From assembly GCA_949126835.1 (NCBI GenBank), contig OX421505.1, positions 8,626,587 to 8,690,586 of the forward strand: DNA of 64,000 nt, read 5' to 3'. The position numbers and the translations under genes were made by a program. Origin of the DNA: Anisus vortex. Taxonomy: Eukaryota; Mollusca; Gastropoda; Planorbidae. Shown piece after piece: positions 1,697 to 57,929 of the stretch; within the stretch, counting starts at the first letter, position 1, and each line of letters opens with the position of its first letter. Below the pieces are notes generated by a model that was not told the origin of the DNA, did not search any database, and saw only the letters and a list, made by a program, of their open reading frames with translations.

Positions 1697-2259
1697 TATT
1701 TTTAGTAATGTATTATTATATATTTTTTGATTCATATCCATCTTGGATCTCACAAGGTTGTATAAGAATTTATATTGATGTTATTGAATTAGATTTGATG
1801 TTTATTTGACTCGTTGCGATATGAATCTTTTGTGTATAAAGTGATTTAGATAAACTGTACCTTAATATATAGGAAATCCACAATCCTGTTTGAAATTGAA
1901 CACAATTTTTTTCCAACAAGTTGAGATGATAAAATATAACAATACCACAGAATACATGTACCAGTATTATATAATGAAACTTAATCAGTTAAGATTCTTC
2001 TATAATGAGTTAAGCCGTAATCCTATCTTTAAGAAAGTGGTCAAAAACAGTCCTCACACATTAGCGCCCAAACTAGAACTAAACTAAACGGTATTCCACC
2101 CTCGTGCATATGACGTATTTTATCGCTATGACGTAGTGTCTAGACATATGCATGTTTTATTCCTAACACAGAAACATTTCGGGTTTAAGATTATTTCATT
2201 TTAACTTTAGTTAATAATAACAGAACCAATATAATATGGAAATAAATCTACTCGTAACA
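1697..2259 (-). repeat. LTR retrotransposon 1, 3' LTR (left end lost in gap)
   Basis: Direct repeat of 7020-7583. On the minus strand the LTR begins TGTTACGAGTAG. I count about four differences between the two copies over some 563 bp, so the insertion is young. By comparison with the right copy, about 35 bp of this LTR lie in the N gap. A polypurine tract abuts it at 2260-2272. The 65-residue open frame in each LTR is probably incidental. Confidence 0.9.
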
Positions 2260-2272
2260 CTCGCCACCCCTT
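2260..2272 (-). promoter_or_regulatory. polypurine tract of LTR retrotransposon 1
   Basis: On the minus strand AAGGGGTGGCGAG sits directly before the 3' LTR (TGTTACGAG). It would prime plus-strand DNA synthesis. Its counterpart in retrotransposon 2 (51673-51685) is similar. Confidence 0.75.
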
Positions 2273-3082
2273 AAGACACAAAGGAATTACAGACAGCGTT
2301 AAGTATGGAATTCTTTGTAGAGTACCCATAAAATGAACCGAATTCCCAAACTTTTCGTAAGATTTAATTGACTATTGGACAATCTTTTAAAGATTAAAAT
2401 GAACCATATATTACATATCCCCTTAATAACAAAGTCGCTATTATGGAATCCCTTATCACATTATCGTATCAATGATTATTAATTAAACATTTATTTATCA
2501 ATTAATATTTACAATTATGATTATTGTGTGTACAACGTTGACCATAAAACTATTACCACCAATAACCAATTCCCACAGAATTGATATGAATTACCCAAAT
2601 AAGTGGAACCGATTAATAATTGATAGATAATTCTTTAGAAAATTTAATTTATTTATAACCGATCACTGTATCATTAACTAATGATTTTCAGTTATCATAT
2701 GATTATTATGATGTCTCAATTATGACATCAAGAATATTTTAAAAAAATGTTATAATCTCAGCTGATTTAGCTTTTACATAGCATAAAATAAGACATCCAA
2801 ATTATAACATGACGACATAGAAACAAACAATTTTCAAAACACATCAATAATCAATTGAACAAACACAAGTGTGGATGTATTCAAGTTAAATACCGGTGTG
2901 TGTGCAATTGCTGTATGCAATAGTTACCTTTTACCTTACAACGTATGATTGTTTCTAGTAGAATTTGAAGTTTTGTTCTGTAATGTCTCATATTGTAATA
3001 TTTCAAAACATAGTTTATTTATTGTCATATTTACAATAATATATATGTTAATCAATACAATGAATGACATAAAAGTAACATT
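2273..3082. other. AT-rich non-coding 3' region of LTR retrotransposon 1
   Basis: It lies between the integrase stop and the polypurine tract, where an intact relative would carry RT and RNase H. No RT, RNase H or envelope-like frame is visible on either strand. Confidence 0.6.
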
Positions 3083-4732
3083 TCATGGGAAACTGGTTTT
3101 CTCTTGTTCAATCAGTCTTGTTCTATTGCGTACATCTGCGAATAGATTAATATTAATATGTTCATTAATTTGACCTTTGATAGCGGATTGTTCGCAGGCG
3201 GGTAAATGTGCCAATTTTTCATTAAGGGTTTTTAGAGCTTTTGTGATTTGTAATTTGCTTTCTGCAACTTCACGCTCAATTTCGGGTGAATTATTCCTGA
3301 CTTTAACAACAGTGTTTACCGAGGCAACAACATTTTGTTCTTCTCTGGTAATGTATGGTTTCAACATATTGATATGGCACACTCGTTGCGATTTCCGTCT
3401 ATCAGGGGTCTTTACAAGATAGTTAACCTCACTAAGCTTAGCCATAACCTCGTAGGGTCCTGTAAACTTGGCACTCAGGGGTTGACCAAACAGTGGCGTC
3501 AGCATGAGAACTTTATCACCAGGTTGGCAGATACGGGTTCTTGCGTTGACGTCATAATAGACCTTCATCTTGTCTTGTGCCTGCAAAAGATTAGATCTGA
3601 CAACTTTTAATGCATTATACAGTCTATTTTTAAAATTTTCCACGTATGTCAGTAGACCAGTGTCTTCAGTGGATGACAACCATGTCTCTTGTAACAGCTT
3701 TAGTGGTCCACGAACTGTGTGTCCGAATACCAGTTCAAAGGGACTGAAACCAAGAGATTCTTGTACAGCCTCTCTGGTTGCGAAGAGTGCGAAGGGAATA
3801 CCACGATCCCAGTCGTCGTTATGCTCGAAACAGAAAGTACGGAGCATATTCTTCAATGTTTGGTGGTATCGTTCCAGTGCGCCTTGACTCTGTGGATGAT
3901 ATGCACTCGATACTGCATGACGAATACCCAGCCGTTCTAAGACTTGGCGAAATAACTTCGATGTGAAATTTGAACCTTGATCTGACTGCACGGTTTTCGG
4001 AAGACCATATCGGGTGAAGAATCCGATAAGTGCATCAGAGATTTTGTCGGCATTGATGCTACGTAGAGGAATAGCCTCTGGGAATCTCGTTGCCGAACAC
4101 ATTATAGTGAACAGATACTGGTGGCCAGCCTTAGTTTTAGGCAACGGACCGACGCAGTCTATAATGATGTGACTGAAGGGTTCTGAGAATGCTGGTATGG
4201 GTCGTAGAGGAGCTACCGGAATGGTCTGATTCGGCTTGCCGACCATCTGGCAGACATGACATGATCTGCAAAACGATGTGACGTCACGACGTAGGCCAGG
4301 CCAGAAGAAATATGGAAGAATCCTGTCGAAGGTTTTCTGTATCCCTAGGTGACCAGCATACGGTGAATCATGGGCCATATGTAGTATGTCCTTGCGGTAA
4401 ACATTGGGTACCACGATTTGATGTACTTCGCTGCATGTTTCATCGTCGTTTTCTTTCCCTCTCCATTTCCTCATCAACAACTCGTCCCTCAGGTAATAAC
4501 CTGCGGCCATTGTTTCTAACTTTCCTTCATTCTTTGCTTCCTCTTTTAGCTTCCCAATCTCTGGATCTTTGCCTTGAGCAAGAATGAGTAGTTGTCTAGG
4601 CGACAAATTATTTTGATCAGTATGACTTGAGTGACCACCTAGAACATCCGCCATGAAGGTTGCTTGTAAGTCAATCTCTGGTGTTGGTTCTGGTTTCTTT
4701 GTCGATTCATTAGTCATCTGCTGTTTCTCCAT
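3083..4732 (-). CDS. integrase region of LTR retrotransposon 1
   Basis: Integrase inserts the element's cDNA into host DNA. In this 549-residue frame the N-terminal HHCC zinc site is visible (H121, H128, C158, C161), then a catalytic triad D192, D251, E287 with exactly 35 residues between the last two (D,D-35-E), in the contexts IIDCVGPLPK, QSDQGSNF and GALERYHQ. A GPY/F module (AKFTGPYEV) follows near residue 420, as in Ty3/gypsy integrases; no chromodomain is seen. The C-terminal part resembles the linker that leads into RT in retrotransposon 2 but stops before any RT motif. The start is only the first ATG: the frame is continuous with the upstream gag-protease frame except for one UAG at 4814-4816, so this is probably part of one polyprotein and not a separate gene. 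Confidence 0.9.
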   Translation of the reverse strand: MEKQQMTNESTKKPEPTPEIDLQATFMADVLGGHSSHTDQNNLSPRQLLILAQGKDPEIGKLKEEAKNEGKLETMAAGYYLRDELLMRKWRGKENDDETCSEVHQIVVPNVYRKDILHMAHDSPYAGHLGIQKTFDRILPYFFWPGLRRDVTSFCRSCHVCQMVGKPNQTIPVAPLRPIPAFSEPFSHIIIDCVGPLPKTKAGHQYLFTIMCSATRFPEAIPLRSINADKISDALIGFFTRYGLPKTVQSDQGSNFTSKLFRQVLERLGIRHAVSSAYHPQSQGALERYHQTLKNMLRTFCFEHNDDWDRGIPFALFATREAVQESLGFSPFELVFGHTVRGPLKLLQETWLSSTEDTGLLTYVENFKNRLYNALKVVRSNLLQAQDKMKVYYDVNARTRICQPGDKVLMLTPLFGQPLSAKFTGPYEVMAKLSEVNYLVKTPDRRKSQRVCHINMLKPYITREEQNVVASVNTVVKVRNNSPEIEREVAESKLQITKALKTLNEKLAHLPACEQSAIKGQINEHININLFADVRNRTRLIEQEKTSFP

Positions 4733-4813
4733 AGCTCTGGTGATAACGCATACTGAATTTTCAGTATTCCTACACTGAACAGAGTCTTTGGTTTCTTTAA
4801 GTACAGGATGTAC

Positions 4814-4816
4814 CTA
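4814..4816 (-). other. in-frame UAG separating protease from integrase
   Basis: The gag-protease and integrase frames are in the same register and are separated only by this amber codon, with no other stop in the 27 intervening codons. Retrotransposon 2 has no stop here. It is either a single inactivating point mutation or a readthrough site; the sequence alone cannot decide. Confidence 0.8.
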
Positions 4817-6706
4817 ATTCTTAGCAATGTCACTTCCTAAAAGTAATGAAATGCCTCTGTAGGGAAATTTCTTCACTATCCCAACAATAACAGATCCAGT
4901 GAAGTAATTACTCTTCAACTGTATACGATGTAACGGTGCCGTAAGTGTTCCAGCCATAGTACTGATCAAGGCATACTGGCCTGTATGAGTCAATTTCGAC
5001 GTTGGTACAGTATTCTTCAACAGTAGAGATATATCAGCACCGGAGTCACGTAGAATTTTAATCTTCCGTTCTCTAGCTTGATTATCTATAGGTGACACAT
5101 AGCCCTCGCTAACATCCGATAGCATGCACTCGGGTAGTTCTCTGCCTACTGAGTTTCTTGCTACACTACTGCCTCCATAAGTAAATGTTTTATTTACTGA
5201 TTGTTCATCTGTCACACTCCCTTTGGAGTTGAAACTAGAATGTTCAATAGCCTCGGTCTTCATTTCAAAGACTTTTTCCGACTTTGAGCAACTTGGACAT
5301 GCGTGTTTCGCCATCTCCTCATGACTAACATCAGATGTCTTTCTTTCAGCTTTAATTCTTTTGTGGGCAGTTTTATTTATGTGAGTTTCAGTTTGTACGG
5401 CGATGTGTGATAAAACCACGTTGTTCTTGTTTTTAATGGGCCTTTTCTCTTTATGTAGACTCCAACAATTCTCTTTTATATGTCCATCTTTCTTACAGAA
5501 TGTACAGGTAATTCTCTTTTGTACAAAACTTGAATTCTCTTGTTTATCGGCTTTTTGTTTACTTTTATCATCTGTCGATCTTAACTTCCTCTCTGTATTA
5601 CTGTTTTGAGTCCTCAAACTTGTTCTGTCATTTTGAAAATATTGGCTATGCGGGTGAATAATGATGTATTCATCGGCTTTAACTGCTGCTTGTTCTGCTA
5701 TTTCAATACCACGATCAGCCAAATGAACTTTTATATCAGTGCGAATCTTCTCAGTAAAATCCTCCATCAGTATGAGATTATATAGTTTCTCATAATCTTT
5801 ATTCACATTCTTAGAACGTAACCATCGATCAAAATACTTTTTCTCTAATCTCAGGAAATCAACATGTGAAACTTCTGGTTCCTTCTTGTACTCACGATAT
5901 AACTTTCGATACTTTTCTGGAGTTAGAACATAACTCAATAGTACTCTGCTCTTTATTAGTTCATAATCATTGCATTCCTCTGGAGTCAAATTCAATACAA
6001 CATCTAGAGCCTTGCCTTTTGTTAGAGCTGAACGTAAAAGTACGGCTTTCTTATCTTCAGGAAATTTATAATCGATCGAGTTTCTTTCGAAGACCATAAA
6101 GAACTCATCAATCTCTATGTTCTCCATGCTTGGGACATGCTTTTTAAACTTATATAGTTCTACATTATTTGTTTCCTGAATCGTATGAGTTGACGAACGA
6201 GACTTTGCCAATTCAATCCTTTCATTACTAGCGATTCTTTCTTTTTCCAATTCCCCCAATCTTTTCTCTTTCTCTGCTTCTATTCTTTTACCTTCTAATT
6301 GTACTTCTATTCTTTTACCTTCCAATTGTACTTCTATTCTTTTACCTTCCAATTGTACTTGAATTTCTAACTTCCTCATTTCTAACTGGAATTTCATGTC
6401 TGCACTTAGTTCATTTCCATTCATTTTAAATTCATGGTTATCTATGTCTGTTTTCAGGGTTTCTGATACATTGAGAACCACTGATTCTTCACTATTCATA
6501 GTATTTTCTTCAAGCATTCTACCATGTCTTTTCAAACTGTCCTTAATATCTTGAATCAATTTACTCCTAACTGGTGTAACTTCAGTAATGTCTATTCCCA
6601 GAGAATTTGCCATCTCTTTTAACTGGGTTAGTGACATGCTAGTTAACTGTTCTGACGTGATAGCAAAAATATTCAGATGCTCCAACGTAAGATTAGCTTC
6701 CGCCAT
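4814..6706 (-). CDS. gag-protease of LTR retrotransposon 1
   Basis: The frame has 630 residues. An N-terminal helical region holds a charged coiled coil (about 105-170) with three tandem 9-residue units of the type QLEGKRIEV. A capsid-like segment (about 185-345) includes FPEDKKAVLLRSAL and LTPEKYRKLYREYKK, alignable by eye with retrotransposon 2. A CCHC zinc knuckle (CTFCKKDGHIKENC, 401-414) would bind RNA. An aspartic protease follows with the active site LRDSGAD near 552-558 and the closing LLLGSD near 621. Gag builds the particle, and the protease cleaves the polyprotein. The frame ends at a UAG, and integrase continues in the same frame 27 codons further on. The ATG at 6706 is well placed behind the leader. 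Confidence 0.9.
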   Translation of the reverse strand: MAEANLTLEHLNIFAITSEQLTSMSLTQLKEMANSLGIDITEVTPVRSKLIQDIKDSLKRHGRMLEENTMNSEESVVLNVSETLKTDIDNHEFKMNGNELSADMKFQLEMRKLEIQVQLEGKRIEVQLEGKRIEVQLEGKRIEAEKEKRLGELEKERIASNERIELAKSRSSTHTIQETNNVELYKFKKHVPSMENIEIDEFFMVFERNSIDYKFPEDKKAVLLRSALTKGKALDVVLNLTPEECNDYELIKSRVLLSYVLTPEKYRKLYREYKKEPEVSHVDFLRLEKKYFDRWLRSKNVNKDYEKLYNLILMEDFTEKIRTDIKVHLADRGIEIAEQAAVKADEYIIIHPHSQYFQNDRTSLRTQNSNTERKLRSTDDKSKQKADKQENSSFVQKRITCTFCKKDGHIKENCWSLHKEKRPIKNKNNVVLSHIAVQTETHINKTAHKRIKAERKTSDVSHEEMAKHACPSCSKSEKVFEMKTEAIEHSSFNSKGSVTDEQSVNKTFTYGGSSVARNSVGRELPECMLSDVSEGYVSPIDNQARERKIKILRDSGADISLLLKNTVPTSKLTHTGQYALISTMAGTLTAPLHRIQLKSNYFTGSVIVGIVKKFPYRGISLLLGSDIAKN

Positions 6707-6958
6707 GTTTTATATTAATGACGTAAACAGAAGATAAAAAATTTCAACTTTACCTTTCATAAAGTCCTTTGAAATATTTTTACACCACTTAATATTTGTA
6801 GGAAATAAATTTTAAGATGATTGTGTACAAAGCTGAAAACAGTATGTCCGAACACAGACAGTGCCTCCCACGTAGACAGAATTTGAATAAATATTTGTTG
6901 TAAATCGTTTTCACTAAAACAGTTGTATATTCTCAATTCTTATACATACAAACTTTAG

Positions 6959-6978
6959 ATCCAGGACTTGAGCCCCCA
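6959..6978 (-). promoter_or_regulatory. candidate primer-binding site, LTR retrotransposon 1
   Basis: On the minus strand TGGGGGCTCAAGTCCTGGAT starts 6 bases after the inferred end of the 5' LTR. It begins TGG, as expected for pairing with a tRNA CCA end, and resembles the proline-tRNA type primer site with two extra bases. The match is by eye. Confidence 0.45.
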
Positions 6979-6984
6979 ATCTTT

Positions 6985-7583
6985 TGTCACGTGCGAAATC
7001 AGCTACTGACGTTAGATGATATTTTTAGTAATGTATTATTATATATTCTTTTGATTCATATCCATCTTGGATCTCACAAGGTTGTATAAGAATTTATATT
7101 GATGTTATTGAATTAGATTTGATGTTTATTTGACTCGTTGCGATATGAATCTTTTGTGTATAAAGTGATTTAGATAAACTGTACCTTAATATATAGGAAA
7201 TCCACAATCCTGTTTGAAATTGAACACAATTTTATTCCAACAAGTTGAGATGATAAAATATAACAATACCACAGAATACATGTACCAGTATTATATAATG
7301 AAACTTAATCAGTTGAGATTCTTCTATAATGAGTTAAGCCGTAATCCTATCTTTAAGAAAGTGGTCAAAAACAGTCCTCACACATTAGCGCCCAAACTAG
7401 AACTAAACTAAACGGTATTCCACCCTCGTGCATATGACGTATTTTATCGCTATGACGTAGTGTCTAGACATATGCATGTTTTATTCCTAACACGGAAACA
7501 TTTCGGGTTTAAGATTATTTCATTTTAACTTTAGTTAATAATAACAGAACCAATATAATATGGAAATAAATCTACTCGTAACA
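6985..7583 (-). repeat. LTR retrotransposon 1, 5' LTR
   Basis: About 599 bp, with minus-strand ends TGTTACGAG and CACGTGACA. Only 7020-7583 can be matched to the left LTR because of the gap. The inner boundary is inferred from the TG/CA ends and from the parallel LTR-AAA-TGG layout of retrotransposon 2. Confidence 0.75.
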
Positions 7584-8661: not shown

Positions 8662-8749
8662 CTGTGCAGCGTACATGAACTATTTCTTTAAAAAAAATGT
8701 TTATATTGTAAAACATTTGTTTATATTATATATATAATTCTCTGTGAAT

Positions 8750-10066: not shown

Positions 10067-10074
10067 AATGCCAA

Positions 10075-10256: not shown

Positions 10257-10264
10257 AACGTCAA

Positions 10265-11610: not shown

Positions 11611-11611
11611 A

Positions 11612-11830: not shown

Positions 11831-12413
11831 ATCTGTGTGTTTGTGGGGGGGGGTTCTGCAATTTATAATGACGGCCTTCCTTGCCTTCAATATGGTTAGT
11901 CGCACCCTTACTGGACACCGTTGGGACTATAAATACAAAACTACAACTTTCAATAAGGATTAGGATCAAATCGTTGAAGAATAACTGAAACTATACTAAA
12001 CTTATACAGAGGAAGATAAGATAATTACTTAATACAGTCTAGACAGAGACAGGGGAAAGCAACTCCCAAAGTGAATCTAAACTGTATGGATACGAGAAGA
12101 CATTTTACTAATAGGATTCTAAAAGTTGGACCGAAAGCCCATTGAAAAAATGGTAGAGGGGATGGATGCTTTCCTATTTGTGACCAGCTAAATCAAGCAT
12201 TATAAGATTTGGATTAAAATACCAACACACACAAAAACTGGATTACTAGAGCTGCAGAATTATCGAGTGGACGTAAGGGTGTAAAATAGCAATAATAATG
12301 AATACTTCTGTAGTGCATGTTTCCATTCTATTGAATATAGCGTGATCAGTGCGTATTTTTTCCATAATTAATTCAGTTGCAGTTGTTTGGGTTGGGGAAG
12401 GCAAAAGAACACC

Positions 12414-12956
12414 GGACAAAGGTCTACAAACACTGGACAAAGGTCTACAAACACTAGACAAAGGTCTACAAACACTGGACAAAGGTCTACAAACACTGGA
12501 CAAAGGTCTACAAACACTGGACAAAGGTCTACATACACTGGACAAAGGTCTACAAACACTGGACAAAGGTCTACAAACACTGGACAAAGGTCTACAAACA
12601 CTGGACAAAGGTCTACAAACACTGGACAAAGGTTTACAAACACTGGACAAAGGTCTACAAACACTAGACAAAGGTCTACAAACACTGGACAAAGGTCTAC
12701 AAACACTGGACAAAGGTCTACAAACACTGGACAAAGGTCTACAAACACTGGACAAAGGTCTACAAACACTGGACAAAGGTCTACAAACACTGGAAAAAGG
12801 TCTACAAACACTGGACAAAGGTCTACAAACACTGGGCAAAGGTCTACAAACACTGGACAAAGGTCTACAAACACTGGACAAAGGTCTACAAACACTGGAC
12901 AAAGGTCTACAAACACTGGACAAAGGTCTACAATCACTGAACAAAGGTCTACAAAA
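12414..12956. repeat. 21-bp minisatellite, about 26 copies
   Basis: Unit GGACAAAGGTCTACAAACACT, nearly uniform with scattered single-base variants. Because 21 is a multiple of three and several frames lack stops, long open frames appear on both strands (7-residue repeats such as TLDKGLQ and FVDLCPV). They are a by-product of the repeat and not evidence of a protein. Confidence 0.95.
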
Positions 12957-17331: not shown

Positions 17332-17945
17332 ATTTCTTCCAAAGAACTGTCCAGTCTGCCGCCGTTCCAACGAACTGTCTGTTCTGCCGCTTTTCCAACG
17401 AACTCTTCGTTCTGTAGCTGTGTCGTTCTGTAGCTGTTCCAACGAACCGTCCGTTCTGCCGCTGTTCCAACAAACTATCCAGCCTGCCGCCGTTCCAACG
17501 AACTGTCCAGTCTGCCGCTGTTACAACGAACTGTCCAGTCTGCCGCTATTCCAACGAACTGTCCAGTCTGTCGCTGTTCCAACGAACTGTCCAGTCTGCC
17601 GCTGTTACAACGAACTGTCCAGTCTGCCGCTATTCCAACGAACTGTCCTGTCTGTCGCTGTTCCAACGAACTGTCCAGTCTGTCACTGTTCCAACGAACT
17701 GTCCAGTCTGTCACTGTTCCAACGAACTGTCCAGTCTGCCGCTGTTCCAACGAACTGTCCAGTCTGCCGCTGTTCCAACGAACTGTCCAGTCTGCCGCTG
17801 TTCTAACGAACTGTCCAGTCTGCCGCTGTTCCAACGAACTGTCCAGTCTGCCGCTGTTCCAACGAACTGTCCAGTCTGCCGCTGTTCCAACGAACTGTCC
17901 AGTCTGCCGCTGTTCCAACGAACTGTCCAGTCTGTCGCTGATTCT
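17332..17945. repeat. 28-bp minisatellite, about 22 copies
   Basis: Unit GTTCCAACGAACTGTCCAGTC plus TGCCGCT. Units at the left are diverged and those at the right almost uniform. 28 is not a multiple of three, so the reading phase rotates and the open frames on both strands are artefacts. Confidence 0.95.
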
Positions 17946-18821: not shown

Positions 18822-18902
18822 TTAACCCTTACAGTCCCGGGCGCGTATATAGCGGAACTCAAGGCAGCATAGATAGAAGTAGGTCGGTACGGGAAGGGTT
18901 AA
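18822..18902. mobile_element. 81-bp TTAA miniature element, copy 1
   Basis: Begins TTAACCCTTACAGTCCCGGG and ends GGTCGGTACGGGAAGGGTTAA. The ends are inverted repeats (TTAACCCTT), with TTAA at each boundary acting as a target duplication of the piggyBac or Kolobok type. It is non-coding. Copies 2 and 3 are at 43359-43439 and 63002-63082, exactly the same length and orientation. Confidence 0.75.
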
Positions 18903-19924
18903 GACGTCATTATCATAATCATCATCATCATATCCGTGACTTTCGTGGTGAGGGTGCTACGCCGGTACGCGTAACCAGATTTCTCCATTCGTCCCAGTCA
19001 GAAGCCTTTTTACGCAAAAGCGTATCAAGAGGTAATTCGGTTCACTCTTGCAGGTTGTCCAACCAATTCTTTTTCTGGCGACATTTTTATGCGTGTTTCT
19101 TCCAAAGGGAGGGCTGAACTACTTTTGCGTGACAAACATTTACCAACTTTTTTCGAAAATTTAGTGCAGATTAAAAAGAAGAAAAAACGTTGAATTCAAG
19201 GGGTGGGGGGAGTACAGTTTTACTCATTCCCCCCCACACGCACACGTGGCTGCACTCCTGGTCTGAGCTCTATATACTCCCTTTCTCTTAGCTCGTACTG
19301 TCTGTCTGCTTGTTTGCTTGTAAAACTTTGCATCGATTTTTCGACCACTTCCCGTTGTCCAATTGAGCTGACACTTGGGCAGCAGACTTGTGGTGACTAA
19401 CAATACATTCAATCAAATTTTCAGTTAACAAAACTTAATTATACTATAATAAGGATTTTTTGGAAAATTTAACGCTTTATTTTGAATTCATGTTGAAAAT
19501 GCCGGTCCAACTTTTAATGGTTTTTCGTCACAAAGCTAGAAAAAAAAAAGGATGCCTAACGTCATCAAACTTTGCGCACTAGCTTTGTGAATGAAGGGAA
19601 AAAATAAATTCATGTTTACATTCGTGTCGTGTTTGTGTTCAAGCCCTACAAATGTTCACGGAAATCAGAAACTCGGTATTTAAAAAAAAATGAGGAATCG
19701 TTACAATTAGATATGTATTTGCCGTATTACAAAGAAAGGGAGTATGATAAAAGCGTGTTTTTTATGGGTTAGTTTTTTTATTATTTTAAAATTTAGTATT
19801 AATTTCTTACGGCAGATACTTAACGCATAAAAATGACAACAGAGAGAAACCCAGTAACAATACTAGAAATAAAACATACAAGTGATTCCTTACACAATGG
19901 GAGAAAAAAATTATGTAATATTCA
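18903..19924. other. no gene seen
   Basis: Unassigned AT-rich DNA with a few homopolymers. Small open frames show no domain. Confidence 0.5.
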
Positions 19925-33730: not shown

Positions 33731-34995
33731 TGAATGTCTAGCTATCGACTATATGTTTATCTATCTATATTTCTGTCTACCTATATATCTAGCTATCGAC
33801 TATATGTTTATCTATCTATATTTCTGTCTACATATATATCTAGCTATCGATTATATGTTTATCTATCTATATTTCTATCTATATATCTAGCTATCGACTA
33901 TATGTTTATCTATCTATATTTCTGTCTACCTATATATCTAGCTATCGACTATATGTTTATCTATCTATATTTCTGTCTACCTATATATCTAGCTATCGAC
34001 TATATGTTTATCTATCTATATTTCTGTCTACCTATATATCTAGCTATCGACTATATGTTTATCTATCTATATTTCTGTCTACCTATATATCTAGCTATCG
34101 ACTATATGTTTATCTATCTATATTTCTGTCTACATATATATAGAGCTATCGACTATATGTTTATCTATCTATATTTCTGTCTACATATATATCTAGCTAT
34201 CGACTATATGTTTATCTATCTATATTTCTGTCTACCTATATATCTAGCTATCGACTATATGTTTATCTATCTATATTTCTGTCTACATATATATAGAGCT
34301 ATCGACTATATGTTTATCTATCTATATTTCTGTCTACCTATATATCTAGCTATCGACTATATGTTTATCTATCTATATTTCTGTCTACCTATATATCTAG
34401 CTATCGACTATATGTTTATCTATCTATATTTCTGTCTACCTATATATCTAGCTATCGACTATATGTTTATCTATCTATATTTCTGTCTACCTATATATCT
34501 AGCTATCGACTATATGTTTATCTATCTATATTTCTGTCTACCTATATATCTAGCTATCGACTATATGTTTATCTATCTATATTTCTGTCTACATATATAT
34601 ATAGCTATCGACTATATGTTTATCTATCTATATTTCTGTCTACCTATATATCTAGCTATCGACTATATGTTTATCTATCTATATTTCTGTCTACCTATAT
34701 ATCTAGCTATCGACTATATGTTTATCTATCTATATTTCTGTCTACCTATATATCTAGCTATCGACTATATGTTTATCTATCTATATTTCTGTCTACATAT
34801 ATATCTAGCTATCGACTATATGTTTATCTATCTATATTTCTGTCTACCTATATATCTAGCTATCGACTATATGTTTATCTATCTATATTTCTGTCTACCT
34901 ATATATCTAGCTATCGACTATATGTTTATCTATCTATATTTCTGTCTACCTATATATCTAGCTATCGACTATATGTTTATCTATCTATATTTCTT
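33731..34995. repeat. 51-bp minisatellite, about 25 copies
   Basis: The unit contains AGCTATCGACTATATG, TTTATCTATCTATATTTCTG and TCTACCTATATATCT. Copies are spaced at 51 bp, with one short 47-bp copy at 33842. Because 51 is a multiple of three, a 430-residue open frame with 17-residue repeats appears; it has no other protein feature and I do not treat it as a gene. Variant units (CATATATATAGAGC, CATATATATATAGC) are interspersed. Confidence 0.95.
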
Positions 34996-43358: not shown

Positions 43359-43439
43359 TTAACCCTTACAGTCCTGGGCGCGTATACAGCGGAACTGAAG
43401 GCAGCATAGATAGAAGTAGGTCGGTACGGGAAGGGTTAA
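43359..43439. mobile_element. 81-bp TTAA miniature element, copy 2
   Basis: Same length and orientation as 18822-18902; differs by about three bases (GTCCTGGGCG, GTATACAGC, ACTGAAGG). Confidence 0.75.
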
Positions 43440-43532
43440 TAAGCCGCTACAACTACTAACGGTGTTTTGAAATAAAAGTTTCCCTAAATAGAAGAAACTA
43501 TGTATCGAAAGTTAGGTTTAGTTATCACTTGC

Positions 43533-44697: not shown

Positions 44698-44837
44698 TTT
44701 CAAAGCTGCCATGGCATTACATTTATGTACATCCTCTCATGCTGTTTTTGATTTCCTACTAACAGTGCATATTTCATTGTGTTTTTTAAATCTTTTATTT
44801 GTGTATATTTCTGTTTATTGATTTATATTTCTAAACG

Positions 44838-46652
44838 ATGCCTAAAAAATCTAACCAGAGAAGTAATCGTCCAAAGAAAAGGAAATTCTATGGAAATAGG
44901 TTTTTTAAAAAGTTACGACTCGATGACGAAGCCATTGAGCCCATTGACATTGTTGAGCCTGTGCCTAGGCCTAGTGAAATGCAGCCTAATATTAGTGATA
45001 ATACTCTGGACATGGAAAATGAAAGTGGAGTTTTAAACACTGAAGCTGCTAACTCTGTTTTAAATACTGCTTTTTGCAAATTAAATGAAAGTGTAAGCGA
45101 GTTAGATGACTTTCCTGATATGCCAAGTGGCTATAGATTTATTGACATAGATAGTTTAGTAAAGTTTATGAATGCATTTATGTGTCCCTCTTGCCTTGAA
45201 GAATGTGGCTTTGAAATGACAGAGTCAAGGTTTGGTGTTAGCTCTAAAATGTCATTCATTTGTAAAGGCTGTAAACAAGACTTCTTATTGAATCATTGTA
45301 AAGAAAATTTAAATTTAAGATTTCAAATGGCTATGTATTCCATTGGATGTCATTATGAGCAGGGCAAAAAGTTTTTAGGAAACATGAACATGCCACCACC
45401 AGTGAGTGTTACTAGAAGTAACTATTTTAAAAGTAAAATACATACAGCCACAGAAAAAGTTGCTAATAACTGTATGAATAAGGCTGCAGCAGAACTTAAA
45501 ACATCTCAGTGTACTGATGGTGACAATGATGTGACAGTATCATGTGATGGCACCTGGCAGCGGCGCGGCTTCATTTCTAAAAATGGTGTGTCTACGGTTC
45601 TATCAGTTAATCCAAGAGGCCCACCTAAAGTTATTGACACCCAAACAAGCAGCAATTACTGTGATAAGTGTGCTAAAGGTAAAAAGAGGCTTTCTCCTGA
45701 TGAATTTTTAATTTGGAAACAAAACCATAATTCAGATTGTGAACAGAACCACACAGGAACTTCTGGAGCGATGGAGTCGCAAGGTATATTTAAATGTTTT
45801 AAACGTTCACAGGAAAAGTATGACCTTACCTACACCGGTTACTTGGGTGATGGAGACTGCAAAAGCTATAAAGCAGTAGCCGAAGCTAATCCACCAATAT
45901 ACCCACTTAAAAATATAAGAAAATTGGAGTGTTGTGGACATGTCCAGAAGAGAATGGGAAAGCGTCTGATGGATAAAACCAATGAATGTAAAGGTAAAGT
46001 CTATGTGGAAAATGGTAAGAAATACACTGGTATAAAGGGTGCTGGTAGACTGACAATATCTGCCATTAAAAGAATTCAGGGACATTATGGTGGCGCTATT
46101 AGAAACAATTCTGGAAATATAACAGCTATGAAAAAAGCCATAATGGGAATTTGGAAACACCGGTTCGGCGAACACGAGGATTGCGGTAATTGGTGCCCTA
46201 GAGACAAAGACTTAGACAAAGCGAATAAGAATAAGCTGCCTAACTTTGTCATGATGGAAATAAAACCTATATTTGAAGATTTAGCATCAGACACATTGTT
46301 AGAAAAGTGTTTACACGGTGGAACTCAAAATGCCAATGAATCTTTTCATCAACTTATATGGAAAAGATGCCCAAAAACAACTTTTGTGGGTAAAAAAAGA
46401 TTGGAAATTGCTGTCTATGATGCCACAATAGTCTACAATGAAGGTGAGTTAGGACGAAGGGACATTTTCAGTTTTCTAGGATTAGAAACAGGATTTTATA
46501 CAGTTAATTCGTTTCGTGCCGCGGACAAAAAAAGGATAGTTGCATCACTAAATGCACAAAAAAATAAAAATAAACAATCCAGGAGTTTTAAAAACAAGGC
46601 CACGAGTTTAGCAGATGCAGAGGAGGATAACTATATACCTGGAGGATTCTAA
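44838..46652 (+). CDS. Kolobok/Mutator-like transposase
   Basis: An intact 604-residue intronless frame. The basic N-terminus (residues 1-30, many K/R) looks like a nuclear localisation or DNA-contact segment. A four-cysteine zinc-ribbon-like motif follows (C116, C119, C142, C145). The catalytic domain shows SCDGTWQRRGF (D237), GYLGDGDCKSY (D338/D340), then KLECCGHVQKRMGKRL with H368, and GGTQNANESFHQLIWKRCPK (E501), consistent with a DDE transposase fold. A CDKCAK cysteine pair lies at 275-278. The motif set matches the Mutator-like transposase domain of animal proteins and also the DGD/EC-H pattern of Kolobok transposases. The enzyme would cut and reinsert the element; flanking TTAA favours Kolobok. 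No stops or frameshifts, so it may be functional. The ATG at 44838 is preceded by an AT-rich leader. Confidence 0.8.
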   Translation: MPKKSNQRSNRPKKRKFYGNRFFKKLRLDDEAIEPIDIVEPVPRPSEMQPNISDNTLDMENESGVLNTEAANSVLNTAFCKLNESVSELDDFPDMPSGYRFIDIDSLVKFMNAFMCPSCLEECGFEMTESRFGVSSKMSFICKGCKQDFLLNHCKENLNLRFQMAMYSIGCHYEQGKKFLGNMNMPPPVSVTRSNYFKSKIHTATEKVANNCMNKAAAELKTSQCTDGDNDVTVSCDGTWQRRGFISKNGVSTVLSVNPRGPPKVIDTQTSSNYCDKCAKGKKRLSPDEFLIWKQNHNSDCEQNHTGTSGAMESQGIFKCFKRSQEKYDLTYTGYLGDGDCKSYKAVAEANPPIYPLKNIRKLECCGHVQKRMGKRLMDKTNECKGKVYVENGKKYTGIKGAGRLTISAIKRIQGHYGGAIRNNSGNITAMKKAIMGIWKHRFGEHEDCGNWCPRDKDLDKANKNKLPNFVMMEIKPIFEDLASDTLLEKCLHGGTQNANESFHQLIWKRCPKTTFVGKKRLEIAVYDATIVYNEGELGRRDIFSFLGLETGFYTVNSFRAADKKRIVASLNAQKNKNKQSRSFKNKATSLADAEEDNYIPGGF

Positions 46653-50992: not shown

Positions 50993-50997
50993 TATAT

Positions 50998-51672
50998 TGT
51001 TACGTCCACAATCCCCTTGTGGCCAGAGCTGTGTAGATCTTGCTGATAATTCTCGTTAGTCCTAGGGGAGACTTTAATTATTAGTATTTATGTTTCAGTA
51101 TTACACGAACTCTTCTTATAGTCCTGGGCACAAATTCAGTATTTGTATTCCAACATTTCCTCTCTTGTAAATTATGGTAGTAGATAAATCTTATAGTAAT
51201 GTATACAACACAATAGGATAGTAACTTGACAAAGAAGCTTCAGTGTAACTGTTGTTGATAGTTTATTTCAGGTGGTATGTTCAATATATACAATATATCT
51301 ATTATGTACAGTTAGAATAAAATAGTGCAAACACAAACGTTCTCAAAAGAACATATTTTGAAACTCCCTATCTTTCAGACAAAACAAATCATTAAATACT
51401 ATCCGAGTGGTGCAAGGGACAGACCCACTACCAGTAGGGGTGAAAATCATGGTAACATTACAAAACTCATAACAAAACGATATGAACTTCCCCTATTAAA
51501 TAATGAGTCGTTCCCAGACTCTGAGAATTTGAGATCAACACAGAATCCCAGCATTACCTAGAACCTTTCGTTTTCCTACTAAACGTCCTAATATCGCGTG
51601 TAGTAAGAAAAGAGAGAGAGAGGAGAATAAACATTGCGTGTTCCGATTCTTGGAAAAACAATATACATGACA
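50998..51672 (-). repeat. LTR retrotransposon 2, 3' LTR
   Basis: 675 bp, plus-strand ends TGTTACGTCC and ATACATGACA. It differs from the 57255-57929 copy at a single base that I can find (AAATCATT against AAATTATT near 51386). ATAT precedes it and ATAT follows the other LTR, so a 4-5 bp target duplication (ATAT or ATATT) is likely. Confidence 0.95.
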
Positions 51673-51685
51673 CGCCCCCACCCAA
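51673..51685 (-). promoter_or_regulatory. polypurine tract of LTR retrotransposon 2
   Basis: The minus strand reads TTGGGTGGGGGCG immediately before the 3' LTR start TGTCATG. Confidence 0.75.
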
Positions 51686-52915: not shown

Positions 52916-52960
52916 TCAATCATGTATCACCCGAGATAGAGTATCAGCTATGACCTTGTC
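52916..52960 (-). pseudogene. RNase H C-terminal remnant at the deletion junction
   Basis: In a frame other than that of the long polyprotein, the minus strand reads DKVIADTLSRVIHD and then a stop. The ADTLSR/ADALSR motif closes the RNase H domain of Ty3/gypsy elements. It overlaps the last codons of the truncated RT, so the sequence jumps from early RT to the end of RNase H. Confidence 0.65.
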
Positions 52961-55900
52961 TCTATCTTGTCGATGATACGGGGAATGGGATACCAGTCGG
53001 TCTTTGTCAAATTACTTAATTTCCCAAAGTCTCTATAAAACTGCAGTGTGTGGTCGGCTTTTGGTACCATCACACAGGGTGTAGACCATTTGCTATCACA
53101 TTTTCCTCCTATGTCATTTTCTAACATATACTTTACATCTAATTTAAAATGCTCAGGTCTGATGGGGTCAAATGGATGCTGTTTAATAGACCTGGCACTA
53201 TCGGTTAACACTACATCGTGCTCTATGACATGTGTCCTACTGGGAACATTTGTAAACATTGACTTATTTTCATGCACCAGCTCAATAATCTTCTCCTTAT
53301 CTTCTACCGGAAGATGTTCTAGCCTTGTATCTAAACTCTTAAGGGCATCTGTATTATTAAGTTTACTTTCTGCAAACTTATATTCTATCCTAGATAAATC
53401 CGTCGGGACCCTAGCTAATGAAATCATGGGGACCTCCCGTGTTTTACTCTTTTCCCTGGAAACATAGGGCTTAAGCAAATTAATATGGCATACCCTCTGC
53501 TTTTGTCTCCGGTCAGGAGTCTTTATCAAATAATTGACCTCGCCAAGCTTTGACTCTATCTCATAGGGTCCACTAAACTTTGCACTTAAAGGCTGATTTT
53601 GCAAAGGTAGAAACACAAGAACTTTGTCACCTGGTGCAAAAGTTCTAGCTGTAGCTTTACGGTCATAGTTCTGTCTCATACGCTCCTGCATCTGTGGAAA
53701 ATGAATCTTCACATGGTTAAAAGCATGATAAAGCCTATTTTTAAATTTATCTACATATGACAAAAGTCCAATCGGTTCACTGTCCGTTAGCCAAGTTTCA
53801 TGTAGAAGTTTCAACGGACCTCTGACTGAGTGTCCATACACAAGTTCGAATGGGCTAAACCCCAGGGATTCCTGAGTGGCCTCCCTTGCAGCGAACAGTA
53901 CATAAGGCACACCCTTATCCCAGTCTTTCTCGTTTTCATAACAGTACTTTTTAAGCATCGATTTTAATGTCTGATGAAACCTTTCCAGAGCTCCCTGGCT
54001 CTCAGGATGATAGGCACTTGATAGCCTATGGCTTATCCCTAATTGTTCCATGACTTGTTTGAAAATGTTCGAAGTAAAGTTAGTCCCCTGGTCGGACTGT
54101 ACTGTCTTCGGTAGGCCATAACGTGTGAAGAAATTTGTCAGGGCGTCTACCACCTTCACTGTTGTTATGTTCCGCAACGGAATGGCTTCCGGGAAGCGAG
54201 TGGATGAACACATGACTGTGAGCAGGTATTGAAAACCGGCTTTTGTTTTCGGCAACGGGCCCACGCAATCAATGAGTATATGACTGAATGGTTCGTCGAA
54301 CGCTGGTATCGGCTGGAGTGGAGCGACAGGAATTCGTTGGTTAGGACGTCCTACCATTTGGCATACGCGGCAAGTCTTGCAGTATTGTTCGACATCTCTT
54401 CTCAGTCCTGGCCAGTAGAAGTAAGGGAGGATACGGTGGTGCGTTTTTCGGACTCCCATGTGACCAGCGAAAGGAAGATCATGCGCCATACGCAGTATAT
54501 CTTGACGATAGCACTTAGGTATTACAATCTGGTGAATACTGTCCCACTCGTTTGTACCTGAGTTGAGCGGTTTCGACTTTCTCATCAACACTTCATCTTT
54601 CATGTAGAAACATTCCGCCATTGCATCTGCAGTCTTTTCATCAACAGCTTTCATTCTGAGTTGCATTATTACTTCGTCATTCAATTGTTCTTTCACCAAT
54701 TTCTGCTTTGGTGACAAAATGTTATCGTTCTCGGTTGCATCACCAGTTGTTAGTTCAGCAAAGAACGTAGCACTTAAATCGATGTCAGGTGTTTCTGTTA
54801 TCACTGTTTCATTCGCATGTGTGTCTTCAGAACAGACAAACACATCTTTCGTTGCACTACACGGCGTAGCAGGAGTCTTTACCGACTTCTTTTTATGCAT
54901 TGCTCTTGTCAGTGCACATGTTGGGCGTTCATTGGCAGGACGTAGGTTTTTGTCCTCCGCCATCTTTGTCTCCAACACTTTAACCATGGGCTCGACAGTG
55001 ACTCTGCCGCCCATAATGTCATTTCCTAATATCATGGAAACGCCTTTGACGGGTAGTGCGCGCCACACTCCCACTACGATGTTACCTGTAAAAATATCCG
55101 ACTCGAGTTTTATTCTGTGCAGTGGAGCTTCCACAGCCTCCATACTAGCACCTCTCAGCACAACAGACTCACCGGTACTGGTGGCATCCGTTAACGGCAC
55201 ACTGCCCTCCAGGATCACGCTGACAGCAGAACCCGTGTCACGTAATATCTGTATTTTCTTCTTGCTGAGTACATCGACTTCTGTCGACACTGTCCCCTCG
55301 TAGACAAAGGGTCGAAAATCGGATAGGTCGTCCTCTTCCGGGACTTCAGGAACCATCTGTTCCTCACGGCCTTCTGAAAGCATAATAGATTGAGTACAGC
55401 TATTCTCTTTTACCTTAGATAGACTGTTCTCAAAAACCATCGACTCCACAACTATGGGCGATGCCGGCCGCATTTCTTTTGAGTTTCTTGACCCTGTGTT
55501 GCACACTTCTTCTGTCTGCTTGCTATCTTTCTGCACTCTGGCACAGTGTAGAATAGCACCTTGCTTCTTGGTAAGGATCCAACAATCTTTCTTCATGTGG
55601 CCCTCTTTCTTGCAATTGAAACATACCACCTTTGCTTTATTTACATCTGTCTGCTTCCTGAAATGAACTAAGTTACTATTATTATTTACACCACTGTTCT
55701 TATTATTGTTTTCACTTGTCTCTTTTGGTTTACTAGCCTCCTTGGGCTCTGGTTTGTGCACTTTGGGTTTGTCAGCATAATATGGCTTTATGCTGGCGTG
55801 AATTATGGCATAGTTATCTGCCAATCTAGCAGCTTCATGCACATCTTCAACCCCTCGGTCTGAGATGTGGGTTTTAATATCCACTCGAATACAATCATTG

Positions 55901-56832
55901 AATTCCTCAAACAATATTAGGTTCTTGAGTTTATCAAACTCACTTACATTCTGTGACCTTAGCCACTGTTCTAACATTTTCTCCTTTTGTCTCAAAAAGT
56001 CTACATGAGTTTGATCATATGCCTTCTTTCTGTCTCTAAATAGCTTTCTATATTTTTCTGGTGTCAGGGAATAACTTTTTAGCACCCTATCTTTGATTAC
56101 TTCATAGTCATTTATTTCCTCGGGTGTTAAACTCAACACTACGTCCAATGCTTTTCCTTTGTTGAGAGTTGACCTTAACAATAAAGCCATCTTATCATCA
56201 GGGAACTGATAATCTACAGCTATCCTCTCAAAAAGCAAAAAGAAATCTTGAACATCTTCTTCTCTGAATATAGGCAAGTGTTGCTTCATTGCGCTAATAT
56301 CCATACCATTGCTGTCCCTACGATGGTCAGGTCTGTTCATGCGTGCCATCTCTATCCTTTCTCTGCTTTCAATCCTAATTCTTTCATTTTCCCTTTCAGT
56401 TTCTATCCTAATTCTTTCATTTTCCCTTTCAGTTTCTATCCTAATTCTTTCATTTTCTCTTTCAGTTTCTATCCTCATTCTTTCCAATTCCATTCTCTTC
56501 ATAGCTAATTGGAATTTTAGGTTTTCACTCAGCCCTTCATCTTCATCATTGTTTGATGATCTAGATGACATATTTCTTACCTCGTCTCCGTGGGCAATTA
56601 CCTCGCCCCCACTGGGAGCTACATAACCTTCATTGATATCGTTCTGTCCCACTTCAACTACACTACCAGTGTTCATGGCATTCTGCCCGTTCAAACATGT
56701 CATAATTTCTTTGGTCAAACGATTACGATTAGGTCTTGCCTGTCCTGCCTCAATCCCAAAGGACTCAGCTAATTCTTTTAGTTCAGCAAATGACATGGCA
56801 TTAAGTTCCTCACTTGATATATTCGAAGCCAT
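52948..56832 (-). CDS. gag-protease-integrase-truncated RT polyprotein of LTR retrotransposon 2
   Basis: One uninterrupted 1294-residue frame. Gag: charged coiled coil (about 105-165) with three tandem units of about 10-11 residues like RIETERENER; capsid-like region (about 180-345); CCHC zinc knuckle CFNCKKEGHMKKDC (404-417). Aspartic protease: active site LRDTGSA (about 530-536) and closing ILGND near 601. Integrase: HHCC zinc site (H784, H791, C821, C824), triad D855, D914, E950 with 35 residues between the last two, GPY/F module (AKFSGPYEI, about 1085). After the integrase come a linker and the start of RT (HDVVLTDSARSIKQHPF to FGKLSNLTKTDWYPIPRIID, about 1205-1288). The frame then ends; the catalytic YxDD and RNase H core are absent. 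Particle formation, maturation and integration functions look intact. Confidence 0.93.
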   Translation of the reverse strand: MASNISSEELNAMSFAELKELAESFGIEAGQARPNRNRLTKEIMTCLNGQNAMNTGSVVEVGQNDINEGYVAPSGGEVIAHGDEVRNMSSRSSNNDEDEGLSENLKFQLAMKRMELERMRIETERENERIRIETERENERIRIETERENERIRIESRERIEMARMNRPDHRRDSNGMDISAMKQHLPIFREEDVQDFFLLFERIAVDYQFPDDKMALLLRSTLNKGKALDVVLSLTPEEINDYEVIKDRVLKSYSLTPEKYRKLFRDRKKAYDQTHVDFLRQKEKMLEQWLRSQNVSEFDKLKNLILFEEFNDCIRVDIKTHISDRGVEDVHEAARLADNYAIIHASIKPYYADKPKVHKPEPKEASKPKETSENNNKNSGVNNNSNLVHFRKQTDVNKAKVVCFNCKKEGHMKKDCWILTKKQGAILHCARVQKDSKQTEEVCNTGSRNSKEMRPASPIVVESMVFENSLSKVKENSCTQSIMLSEGREEQMVPEVPEEDDLSDFRPFVYEGTVSTEVDVLSKKKIQILRDTGSAVSVILEGSVPLTDATSTGESVVLRGASMEAVEAPLHRIKLESDIFTGNIVVGVWRALPVKGVSMILGNDIMGGRVTVEPMVKVLETKMAEDKNLRPANERPTCALTRAMHKKKSVKTPATPCSATKDVFVCSEDTHANETVITETPDIDLSATFFAELTTGDATENDNILSPKQKLVKEQLNDEVIMQLRMKAVDEKTADAMAECFYMKDEVLMRKSKPLNSGTNEWDSIHQIVIPKCYRQDILRMAHDLPFAGHMGVRKTHHRILPYFYWPGLRRDVEQYCKTCRVCQMVGRPNQRIPVAPLQPIPAFDEPFSHILIDCVGPLPKTKAGFQYLLTVMCSSTRFPEAIPLRNITTVKVVDALTNFFTRYGLPKTVQSDQGTNFTSNIFKQVMEQLGISHRLSSAYHPESQGALERFHQTLKSMLKKYCYENEKDWDKGVPYVLFAAREATQESLGFSPFELVYGHSVRGPLKLLHETWLTDSEPIGLLSYVDKFKNRLYHAFNHVKIHFPQMQERMRQNYDRKATARTFAPGDKVLVFLPLQNQPLSAKFSGPYEIESKLGEVNYLIKTPDRRQKQRVCHINLLKPYVSREKSKTREVPMISLARVPTDLSRIEYKFAESKLNNTDALKSLDTRLEHLPVEDKEKIIELVHENKSMFTNVPSRTHVIEHDVVLTDSARSIKQHPFDPIRPEHFKLDVKYMLENDIGGKCDSKWSTPCVMVPKADHTLQFYRDFGKLSNLTKTDWYPIPRIIDKIETRS

Positions 56833-57077
56833 AGTATAGCGTTCGAAATATTTGTTATAGTAGAGTAGTATATATTGTATAATAAAATATAAAGTTCCAA
56901 CTTACGATTTGTCCAGAAATTTGCACAATATAATATTAAACACTTCGTGGAATCTTCACACTTCCCAAGGAATAAAAACGCAAACCAGTTCTCTCCTCTT
57001 TTTAAAAAAAAATAGTTTCACAGTCCTGAAAACGAAACACAAATATGCCGCTCTCAGTACTACTAATGTCACAAAAT

Positions 57078-57254
57078 ATTTATAGGTCAGGAAAAAATAT
57101 AACTCAAATTTTCCAGACGAGATCAACAATTTTTTTTTCCAATCCTAGATCAAGAAAAGTAGAACTCAAATCTACCGAACGAGACTACCAAATCTTGTCA
57201 ATCCTAGGTCAGGAAAAGTAGAACTCAAATATACCGGGCGAGACCACCAAATTT
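57078..57254 (-). repeat. triplicated leader segment containing a primer-binding-site-like sequence
   Basis: Three tandem units of about 59-62 bp directly downstream of the 5' LTR. The first reads, on the minus strand, TTTGGTGGTCTCGCCCGG, the second TTTGGTAGTCTCGTTCGG and the third TTGTTGATCTCGTCTGG, each followed by ATTTGAGTT. The first begins TGG three to five bases after the LTR and is the likely tRNA primer site. Confidence 0.65.
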
Positions 57255-57929
57255 TGTTACGTCCACAATCCCCTTGTGGCCAGAGCTGTGTAGATCTTGC
57301 TGATAATTCTCGTTAGTCCTAGGGGAGACTTTAATTATTAGTATTTATGTTTCAGTATTACACGAACTCTTCTTATAGTCCTGGGCACAAATTCAGTATT
57401 TGTATTCCAACATTTCCTCTCTTGTAAATTATGGTAGTAGATAAATCTTATAGTAATGTATACAACACAATAGGATAGTAACTTGACAAAGAAGCTTCAG
57501 TGTAACTGTTGTTGATAGTTTATTTCAGGTGGTATGTTCAATATATACAATATATCTATTATGTACAGTTAGAATAAAATAGTGCAAACACAAACGTTCT
57601 CAAAAGAACATATTTTGAAACTCCCTATCTTTCAGACAAAACAAATTATTAAATACTATCCGAGTGGTGCAAGGGACAGACCCACTACCAGTAGGGGTGA
57701 AAATCATGGTAACATTACAAAACTCATAACAAAACGATATGAACTTCCCCTATTAAATAATGAGTCGTTCCCAGACTCTGAGAATTTGAGATCAACACAG
57801 AATCCCAGCATTACCTAGAACCTTTCGTTTTCCTACTAAACGTCCTAATATCGCGTGTAGTAAGAAAAGAGAGAGAGAGGAGAATAAACATTGCGTGTTC
57901 CGATTCTTGGAAAAACAATATACATGACA
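57255..57929 (-). repeat. LTR retrotransposon 2, 5' LTR
   Basis: 675 bp, the same length as the left LTR and one substitution apart. Followed on the plus strand by ATATT. The 78-residue open frame present in both LTRs is conserved only because the LTRs are. Confidence 0.95.

What the first reader, a model, noticed from the sequence alone, without database searches (positions are those of the whole stretch)
1697..57929. Two different, young LTR elements both keep gag-PR-INT and lack RT-RNase H
Elements 1 and 2 have clearly different gag and LTR sequences, so they belong to separate families, and their losses begin at different points (before RT in element 1, inside RT in element 2). Yet both have near-identical LTR pairs, meaning they were reverse transcribed recently. 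This points to gag-protease-integrase elements that use an RT supplied in trans. The Gmr1-like order places RT-RH last, so its loss leaves the rest translatable. This could be a recurrent, undescribed type of non-autonomous retroelement.
Basis: partly seen in the sequence, partly recalled or inferred. Interest (0 to 1): 0.88.

Follow-up and report, generated by a model that had tools for sequence, protein, structure and literature searches.

The report
Retrotransposons that borrow their reverse transcriptase
This genome holds two separate families of jumping elements, each found in at least 40 near-identical copies, that have lost the gene for reverse transcriptase yet apparently inserted very recently, so they likely borrow that enzyme from complete sister elements that sit in the same genome with matching ends.

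Summary
Each deletion is shared: all 40 scored genome matches to the E2 junction and all 40 to the E1 junction span it (scoring stops at 40). Six further copies checked have LTR pairs 99.8-100% identical and 4-bp target duplications. Each RT-less family has an RT-bearing sister family in this genome (97 of 97 scored RT matches each); the two copies of each that I read in pieces share LTR, leader and 3' noncoding sequence with E1 or E2. RT supplied in trans is the best explanation; it is inferred. New: beside each deletion the sequence is strongly diverged (E2 RT stub: synonymous divergence 0.23-0.24, versus 0-0.06 in adjoining integrase) while the rest nearly equals the sister. The RT-less junctions are probably old, their flanks renewed by recombination with the partner. 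That also weakens purifying selection on integrase as proof that RT-less copies use their own proteins. Wheat gag-PR 'semi-autonomous' elements are the closest known kind; ten literature searches listed no RT-less element that keeps gag-PR-INT.

The parts
6985..7583 (-). E1 5' LTR, 599 bp, TG...CA
1697..2259 (-). E1 3' LTR, cut at its outer end by the N gap 1497-1696
6945..6984 (-). E1 primer-binding stretch (first 40 nt after the LTR), identical in 2 of 2 RT-bearing partner copies read
4817..6706 (-). E1 gag and protease
   Evidence: SCAN E 3e-5, RVP E 0.0013, both just under the curated cut-off
4814..4816 (-). private in-frame stop between PR and INT; absent from 23 of 23 aligned other copies
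3086..4813 (-). E1 integrase, ending at the RT start
3073..3160 (-). E1 deletion junction zone; 53 of 74 aligned bases match partner copy C2 versus 95-100% per window further 3'
2260..2275 (-). E1 polypurine tract (approximate); one base differs from the partner copy read
57255..57929 (-). E2 5' LTR, 675 bp
50998..51672 (-). E2 3' LTR, 675 bp; target duplication ATAT
57215..57254 (-). E2 primer-binding stretch (40 nt), identical in 1 of 2 partner copies read
53257..56832 (-). E2 gag-PR-INT frame
   Evidence: integrase matches solved Ty3 and PFV integrases
52951..53256 (-). E2 RT stub (N-terminal part of RT), decayed
52928..52975 (-). E2 RNase H C-terminal tail, out of frame; the deletion junction lies at its upstream end
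51673..51683 (-). E2 polypurine tract; the 30-nt stretch around it is identical in 2 of 2 partner copies read

Best explanation
E1 and E2 belong to two independent, multi-copy families of Ty3/gypsy-type LTR retrotransposons with the Gmr1 gene order that lack reverse transcriptase-RNase H (E2 keeps only a stub) and are likely copied in trans by the RT of their own RT-bearing sister family in the same genome. Shown: the shared junctions, the young LTR pairs and target duplications, and the two sister families, of which two copies each were read and match in LTR, leader and 3' noncoding sequence. Inferred: RT-less RNA is packaged with sister RNA in shared particles, primed at the shared site, reverse transcribed by sister RT and inserted with the usual 4-bp duplication. 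Inferred, less sure: the Gag-PR-INT made by RT-less copies contributes to those particles. Inferred: the RT-less junctions are old, and template switching or gene conversion with the sister keeps replacing the sequence around them, which keeps LTRs and Gag-PR-INT compatible with the sister's RT while the stub next to the deletion drifts.
For: Independent insertions: in the 25 loci with a readable 3' flank after the E1 LTR, the 8-9 bases shown differ except in one pair, L058/L068; target duplications in 3 of 3 E1 and 3 of 3 E2 copies checked, LTR pairs 99.8-100%. More than one round without RT: INT plus 3' noncoding parts of those three E1 copies differ by 0.76-1.49%, although their LTR pairs differ by 0-0.17%; for the three E2 copies 0.71-0.94% against 0-0.19%. 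Partner of E1: 97 of 97 scored RT-RH matches at 99-100%; two copies read: LTR 98.2-99.3%, leader 97-98%, gag start 96-97%, INT end 93% (one copy, 245 bp), 3' noncoding 97%; 40-nt primer stretch identical in 2 of 2. Partner of E2: 97 of 97 scored at 75-76% to the P0002 query; two copies read: LTR 96.5-97.6%, leader 96-98%, gag start 99-100%, INT end plus stub 92%, 3' noncoding 94-96%. Old junction: E2 against partner copy C16 has 0 synonymous differences in 66 sites of the INT end but 16.3 in 67 of the stub (p 1e-5); the stub departs from 10 of 30 columns invariant in 12 RT-bearing relatives, INT from 5 of 126; E1 shows the same fall in identity towards its junction.
Against: No expression, particle or transposition data; trans supply is not shown. 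Copies were the best matches to the query, so they are biased to young, intact ones, and the ratio of RT-less to RT-bearing copies is unknown. Only two copies of each sister family were read; that the other scored matches carry the same LTRs was not checked. In the E1 partner copy on C2 the 3' part stops matching E1 after 553 bp and no 3' LTR lay in the piece read. For E2 against the second partner copy (C17) the contrast is weaker: 4 of 66 versus 15.3 of 66 synonymous (p 0.012). One of two E2 partner copies has a different primer stretch. The 3' noncoding part of E2 also has windows of 0.89-0.94 away from the junction. The stub could be a diverged foreign patch rather than aged sequence.
Confidence: 0.82

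Rival explanations
1. Pure hitchhikers: the RT-less copies use all proteins of the sister, and their own Gag-PR-INT frame is open only because the copies are young and recombine, not because it is used.
For: The INT end of E2 has no synonymous difference from one partner copy, so frame conservation can come from the partner; among E1 rows only 14 of 24 have INT fully open, 4 more with a stop only in the last codon.
Against: 23 of 27 E2 rows keep the frame over 600 codons; shared INT variants are constrained (E2 7N:11S, E1 29N:30S against neutral N/S expectations of 2.8 and 3.0).
Confidence: 0.35
2. The diverged block at each junction is a foreign patch: the deletion arose by template switching through a different, diverged element, so the junction need not be old.
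For: In E2 the divergence starts abruptly near the INT/RT border.
Against: The stub has lost residues invariant in 12 RT-bearing relatives, and its N:S ratio against the partner (0.59-0.62) is about what one unconstrained branch would give (my reasoning); among the 120 of 1726 relatives listed for INT plus stub, the best RT-bearing ones reach 62%. E1 falls off more gradually on its 5' side.
Confidence: 0.2
3. The RT-less form is a reverse-transcribed spliced RNA of the sister, renewed by ongoing splicing rather than by its own lineage.
For: In both E2 partner copies the segment missing from E2 can be read as starting with GT and ending with AG.
Against: A 3-base repeat at the two break points allows several equivalent placements; by eye there is no pyrimidine tract before the AG; E1's junction is too diverged to place; copies made by present splicing would carry the partner's stub sequence, but the stub is 23-24% diverged at synonymous sites.
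Confidence: 0.07
4. Copies spread by DNA duplication, or are an assembly artefact.
For: L058 and L068 share a flank; L013 and L014, on one contig, carry the same broken INT frame.
Against: Other readable flanks differ, 4-bp target duplications in 6 of 6 copies checked, matches on many large contigs.
Confidence: 0.02

Closest known systems
Gmr1 clade of Ty3/gypsy (integrase upstream of RT; PMC6238403, passage read)
   Same: Gene order gag-PR-INT-RT-RH in the sister families and in protein relatives P0002-P0004, P0054
   Different: E1 and E2 lack RT-RH; no reference Gmr1 sequence was aligned here
Semi-autonomous RLG_Sabrina_SA and RLG_WHAM of wheat (PMC9744471, passages read)
   Same: Multi-copy LTR elements that keep some protein genes, lack RT, and are thought to be mobilised by an autonomous partner with similar PBS and LTR ends
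   Different: They lack integrase as well as RT; E1/E2 keep integrase, lost RT independently in two families of one genome, and are near copies of their partner
RLG_Quinta with RLG_Cereba (PMC11302176, passages read)
   Same: Non-autonomous derivative with a gag frame and the same PBS and LTR ends as its partner
   Different: Encodes gag plus an unknown domain, no RT, no INT
BARE2 with BARE1 in barley (PMC3735527, passages read)
   Same: Conserved deletion that removes one function; RNA packaged into particles although it makes no Gag
   Different: The lost protein is Gag, not RT
Non-autonomous endogenous pararetroviruses of grasses (PMC5491270, passages read)
   Same: Defective lineages kept compatible with partners by recombination
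   Different: There the exchange described is of noncoding regulatory regions; here coding sequence is as close to the partner as the LTRs
TR-GAG (PMC4608283, passages read), LARD, TRIM (recalled)
   Same: Non-autonomous LTR elements
   Different: Keep gag (or gag-PR) only, or no genes

Membership tests
Gmr1-like Ty3/gypsy | integrase upstream of RT-RH | tested here: met
   INT directly followed by RT in partner pieces L081, L086, L089 and in P0002, P0003, P0054
Gmr1-like Ty3/gypsy | RT falls in the Gmr1 clade of a reference phylogeny | not tested
   No reference Gmr1 sequence used; the clade name rests on gene order
Non-autonomous LTR element with an autonomous partner | partner shares LTR ends, primer-binding site, polypurine tract | tested here: met
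   one of two E2 partner copies has a variant primer stretch; E1's tract differs at one base from the partner copy read
Non-autonomous LTR element with an autonomous partner | partner supplies the missing protein in trans | not testable with these tools
   no expression or biochemical data
Wheat-type semi-autonomous elements | intact gag(-PR) frame, RT absent | tested here: met
   gag-PR open in 6 of 6 copies read beside the window; RT absent or a stub
Wheat-type semi-autonomous elements | integrase also absent | tested here: not met
   integrase present; fully open in 23 of 27 E2 and 14 of 24 E1 rows
TR-GAG / LARD / TRIM | no integrase or RT (definition partly recalled) | tested here: not met
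   INT present

The most novel reading that the evidence does not exclude
A two-part retrotransposon system with division of labour: in families whose complete element is one unbroken gag-PR-INT-RT-RH frame, with no frameshift or stop seen that would make Gag in excess, RT-less copies serve as the Gag-PR-INT supply and RT-bearing copies as the RT supply. The RT deletion is kept as an old allele in each family, with everything around it continually renewed by recombination, so that RT loss has become a stable, recurrent life style of this clade made easy by RT lying last.
Probability: 0.22. Interest if true: 0.88.

Novelty: new variant of a known kind. Interest (0 to 1): 0.74.

Why it matters
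RT is the enzyme that defines retroelements; a multi-copy, recently inserting lineage that keeps gag, protease and integrase but not RT makes trans use of RT directly testable. It has arisen at least twice in one genome, with RT-bearing partners identified there, and protein relatives elsewhere (P0001 with E2's own junction; P0005 and P0008 with other RT deletions, as I read their ends) suggest recurrence. The pattern of an aged junction inside fresh flanks gives a way to date defective lineages that recombination otherwise makes look young, and is a caution against reading constraint in non-autonomous elements as proof of function.

Tried and rejected
RVT_1 search of the genome: the eight loci cut (L001-L008, of 150 scored) gave no tblastn match to Gmr1-type RT or INT. 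IMG/VR scan with P0001: no relative. P0003 family (97 of 97 scored copies at 100%) tested as a general RT donor with one copy: its LTR has no blastn match to E1 or E2 and its primer stretch differs, so it is not the natural partner. P0055 (1165 aa, 8 members) looked like a third RT-less family, but its tail reads as the RT start in another frame (my reading), so it is not counted; of the other RT-less-looking proteins only the ends were looked at. P0008, read as RT-less only afterwards, carried no RT-less label in the tree. Selection on INT is kept as a result but no longer as proof. Rows dropped before the variant counts: E2 L013, L014, L038 (frameshifted) and L023, L029, L033 (cut); E1 L046, L055, L056, L063 (frameshifted) and L041, L048, L049, L054, L061, L065 (partial). 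One search failed (script error) and was redone.
Full report
What is there. Two minus-strand LTR elements were confirmed. E1 has LTRs 1697-2259 and 6985-7583, the left one cut by a 200-N gap that adjoins it. E2 has LTRs 50998-51672 and 57255-57929 with one mismatch in 675. Both code for a SCAN-like capsid protein, protease and integrase; the E2 integrase matches solved Ty3 and foamy-virus integrases. RT-RH queries find E2's RT start (E 3e-30) and, at chance level, its RNase H end and 16 residues at the RT start of E1.

Copies. The window is part of an unnamed 863-Mb assembly of 159 contigs. A 601-base query across E2's junction gave 40 scored matches of 1901 candidates, all 40 full length at 99-100%; across E1's junction 40 of 1333, 39 full length and one 1-599, at 97-100%. 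These are lower bounds, because scoring stops at 40. Of the 30 E2 loci cut out, 27 (the window's own included) are colinear over 3.6 kb. E1's in-frame stop between PR and INT is private: 23 of 23 aligned other copies lack it. The INT frame is fully open in 23 of 27 E2 rows and 14 of 24 E1 rows (the window's own counted in each), and 4 more E1 rows have a stop only at the last codon. 5' halves of three further copies of each family were fetched: gag-PR is open as far as read in all six; LTR pairs are 100, 99.83 and 100% (E1, full 599 bp) and 99.8, 100 and 100% (E2, about 522 bp compared); target duplications of 4 bp were found in 3 of 3 E1 and 3 of 3 E2 copies. INT plus 3' noncoding parts of those three E1 copies differ by 0.76-1.49%, of the three E2 copies by 0.71-0.94%. 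Lineages that differ this much yet have near-identical LTR pairs must have inserted anew after they split, so the families probably went through more than one round without RT in cis (inference).

Two independent losses. There is no blastn match between the LTRs of E1 and E2. In an integrase tree of 38 rows, E1 groups with RT-bearing P0003 and P0004 (100/99), E2 with P0001 (100/99), and the RT-less label (E1, E2, P0001, P0005) needs at least two changes. P0001, a 1283-aa protein from a public 6.1-kb contig, is 98% identical to E2 and ends at the same junction.

Partners. RT of P0054, whose gag-PR and INT are 95-96% identical to E1, has 97 of 97 scored matches at 99-100% in this genome, of 6386 candidates; by my count of the printed column, 73 of 97 lie in an open frame of 1589 aa or more, the length of the whole polyprotein. 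Two copies read in pieces match E1 at 98.2-99.3% in the LTR, 97-98% in the leader, 96-97% in the gag start and 97% in the 3' noncoding part; the INT end, read in one copy, is 93% over 245 bp. In the copy on C2 the 3' match ends after 553 bp and no 3' LTR lay in the piece read; in the copy on C9 it runs 850 bp to the LTR. The 40-nt primer stretch is the same in 2 of 2. With the RT of P0002 as query, 97 of 97 scored matches (of 6271 candidates) are 75-76% identical, 75 of 97 in an open frame of 1622 aa or more; the two copies read match E2 in the LTR (96.5-97.6%), leader (96-98%), gag start (99-100%), INT end plus stub (92%) and 3' noncoding part (94-96%), with the same polypurine stretch in 2 of 2 and the same primer stretch in 1 of 2. 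Whether the other scored matches carry these LTRs was not checked. Relative to the partners, E2 lacks about 1.0 kb inside RT-RH; E1 lacks about 1.3 kb from the RT start to just behind the RH stop.

Old junctions in fresh flanks. E2 against partner copy C16: over 106 INT-end codons 0 of 66 synonymous and 1 of 252 nonsynonymous sites differ; over the 112-codon RT stub the figures are 16.3 of 67 and 37.7 of 260 (Fisher on synonymous sites 1e-5). Against copy C17 the synonymous figures are 4 of 66 and 15.3 of 66 (p 0.012). The two partner copies differ from each other by only 2-4% at synonymous sites in both parts. In 50-base windows E2's identity to C16 is 0.96-1.00 from 53560 to 53261, then 0.84-0.88, and 0.76 at the junction; on the 3' side it is 0.92, then 0.96-1.00, with a dip to 0.89-0.94 some 250-350 bases away. 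E1 against copy C2 falls from 1.00 through 0.95 and 0.88-0.90 to 0.76 and 0.68, then returns to 0.95-1.00; copy C9, read on the 3' side only, gives 0.65 and then 0.95-1.00. Two partner copies against each other, as control behind the RH end, give 0.95-1.00 in both families. The E2 stub departs from 10 of 30 columns invariant among 12 RT-bearing relatives, INT from 5 of 126; leave-one-out controls give 0-4 in the stub and 0-10 in INT. Equal mutation is unlikely to give so different synonymous change in neighbouring stretches, so the flanks were probably replaced (recombination with the partner, inferred) or the stub imported.

Selection. With 24 E2 and 20 E1 rows, variants shared by two or more copies in INT are skewed to synonymous (E2 7N:11S, p 0.002; E1 29N:30S, p 2e-5; neutral N/S expectation 2.8 and 3.0), single-copy variants less so (E2 24N:15S, p 0.07; E1 49N:30S, p 0.007), and the E2 stub is not (shared 8N:0S; INT against stub p 0.007). 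Since INT appears to be exchanged with intact partners, this constraint may have acted in the partners.

How it likely works. RNA of an RT-less copy is probably packaged with sister RNA, primed at the shared site, copied by sister RT and integrated with a 4-bp duplication. Whether RT-less copies help (extra Gag and integrase) or only take is open.

Known kinds. Wheat RLG_Sabrina_SA (gag-PR) and RLG_Quinta (gag) are called semi-autonomous or non-autonomous with autonomous partners and lack RT and INT (PMC9744471, PMC11302176; passages). BARE2 cannot express Gag (PMC3735527; passages). The Gmr1 clade has integrase before RT (PMC6238403; passage). Ten searches of the held open-access library listed no paper that, by title or start of abstract, describes RT-less elements keeping gag-PR-INT; most subscription papers and all preprints are missing there.

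Noticed in passing
44835-46652 (+): Intact 605-codon frame with a full-length Mutator-like transposase domain (PF20700, E 3e-58).
   Followed up: no
61682-62255: 33.8 copies of a 17-bp unit at 100% matches; other long minisatellites at 33737-34994 (51 bp), 12408-12955 (21 bp), 17433-17940 (28 bp).
   Followed up: no
18822-18905, 43359-43442, 63002-63085: Three 84-nt copies, 94-98% alike, that start TTAACCCTT and carry AAGGGTTAA near the other end, MITE-like.
   Followed up: no
57083-57257: E2's leader carries diverged tandem copies (about 59 bp) of the stretch that holds the primer site, just behind the real one.
   Followed up: partly
G000, P0003 family: A third RT-bearing Gmr1-type family with 97 of 97 scored copies at 100% RT-RH identity, which suggests a very recent burst.
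   Followed up: partly
proteins P0005, P0008: Public proteins of the same clade with other RT deletions as I read their ends (P0005 joins the RT start to the RNase H end in frame; P0008 seems to keep only the RNase H start), possibly further RT-less families.
   Followed up: partly
E2 partner pieces L086/L087, L089/L090: The segment missing from E2 can be read as GT...AG in both partner copies.
   Followed up: partly
L013 and L014 (G000:C4, about 130 kb apart): Two E2 copies with the same broken INT frame, probably one insertion duplicated with its surroundings.
   Followed up: no
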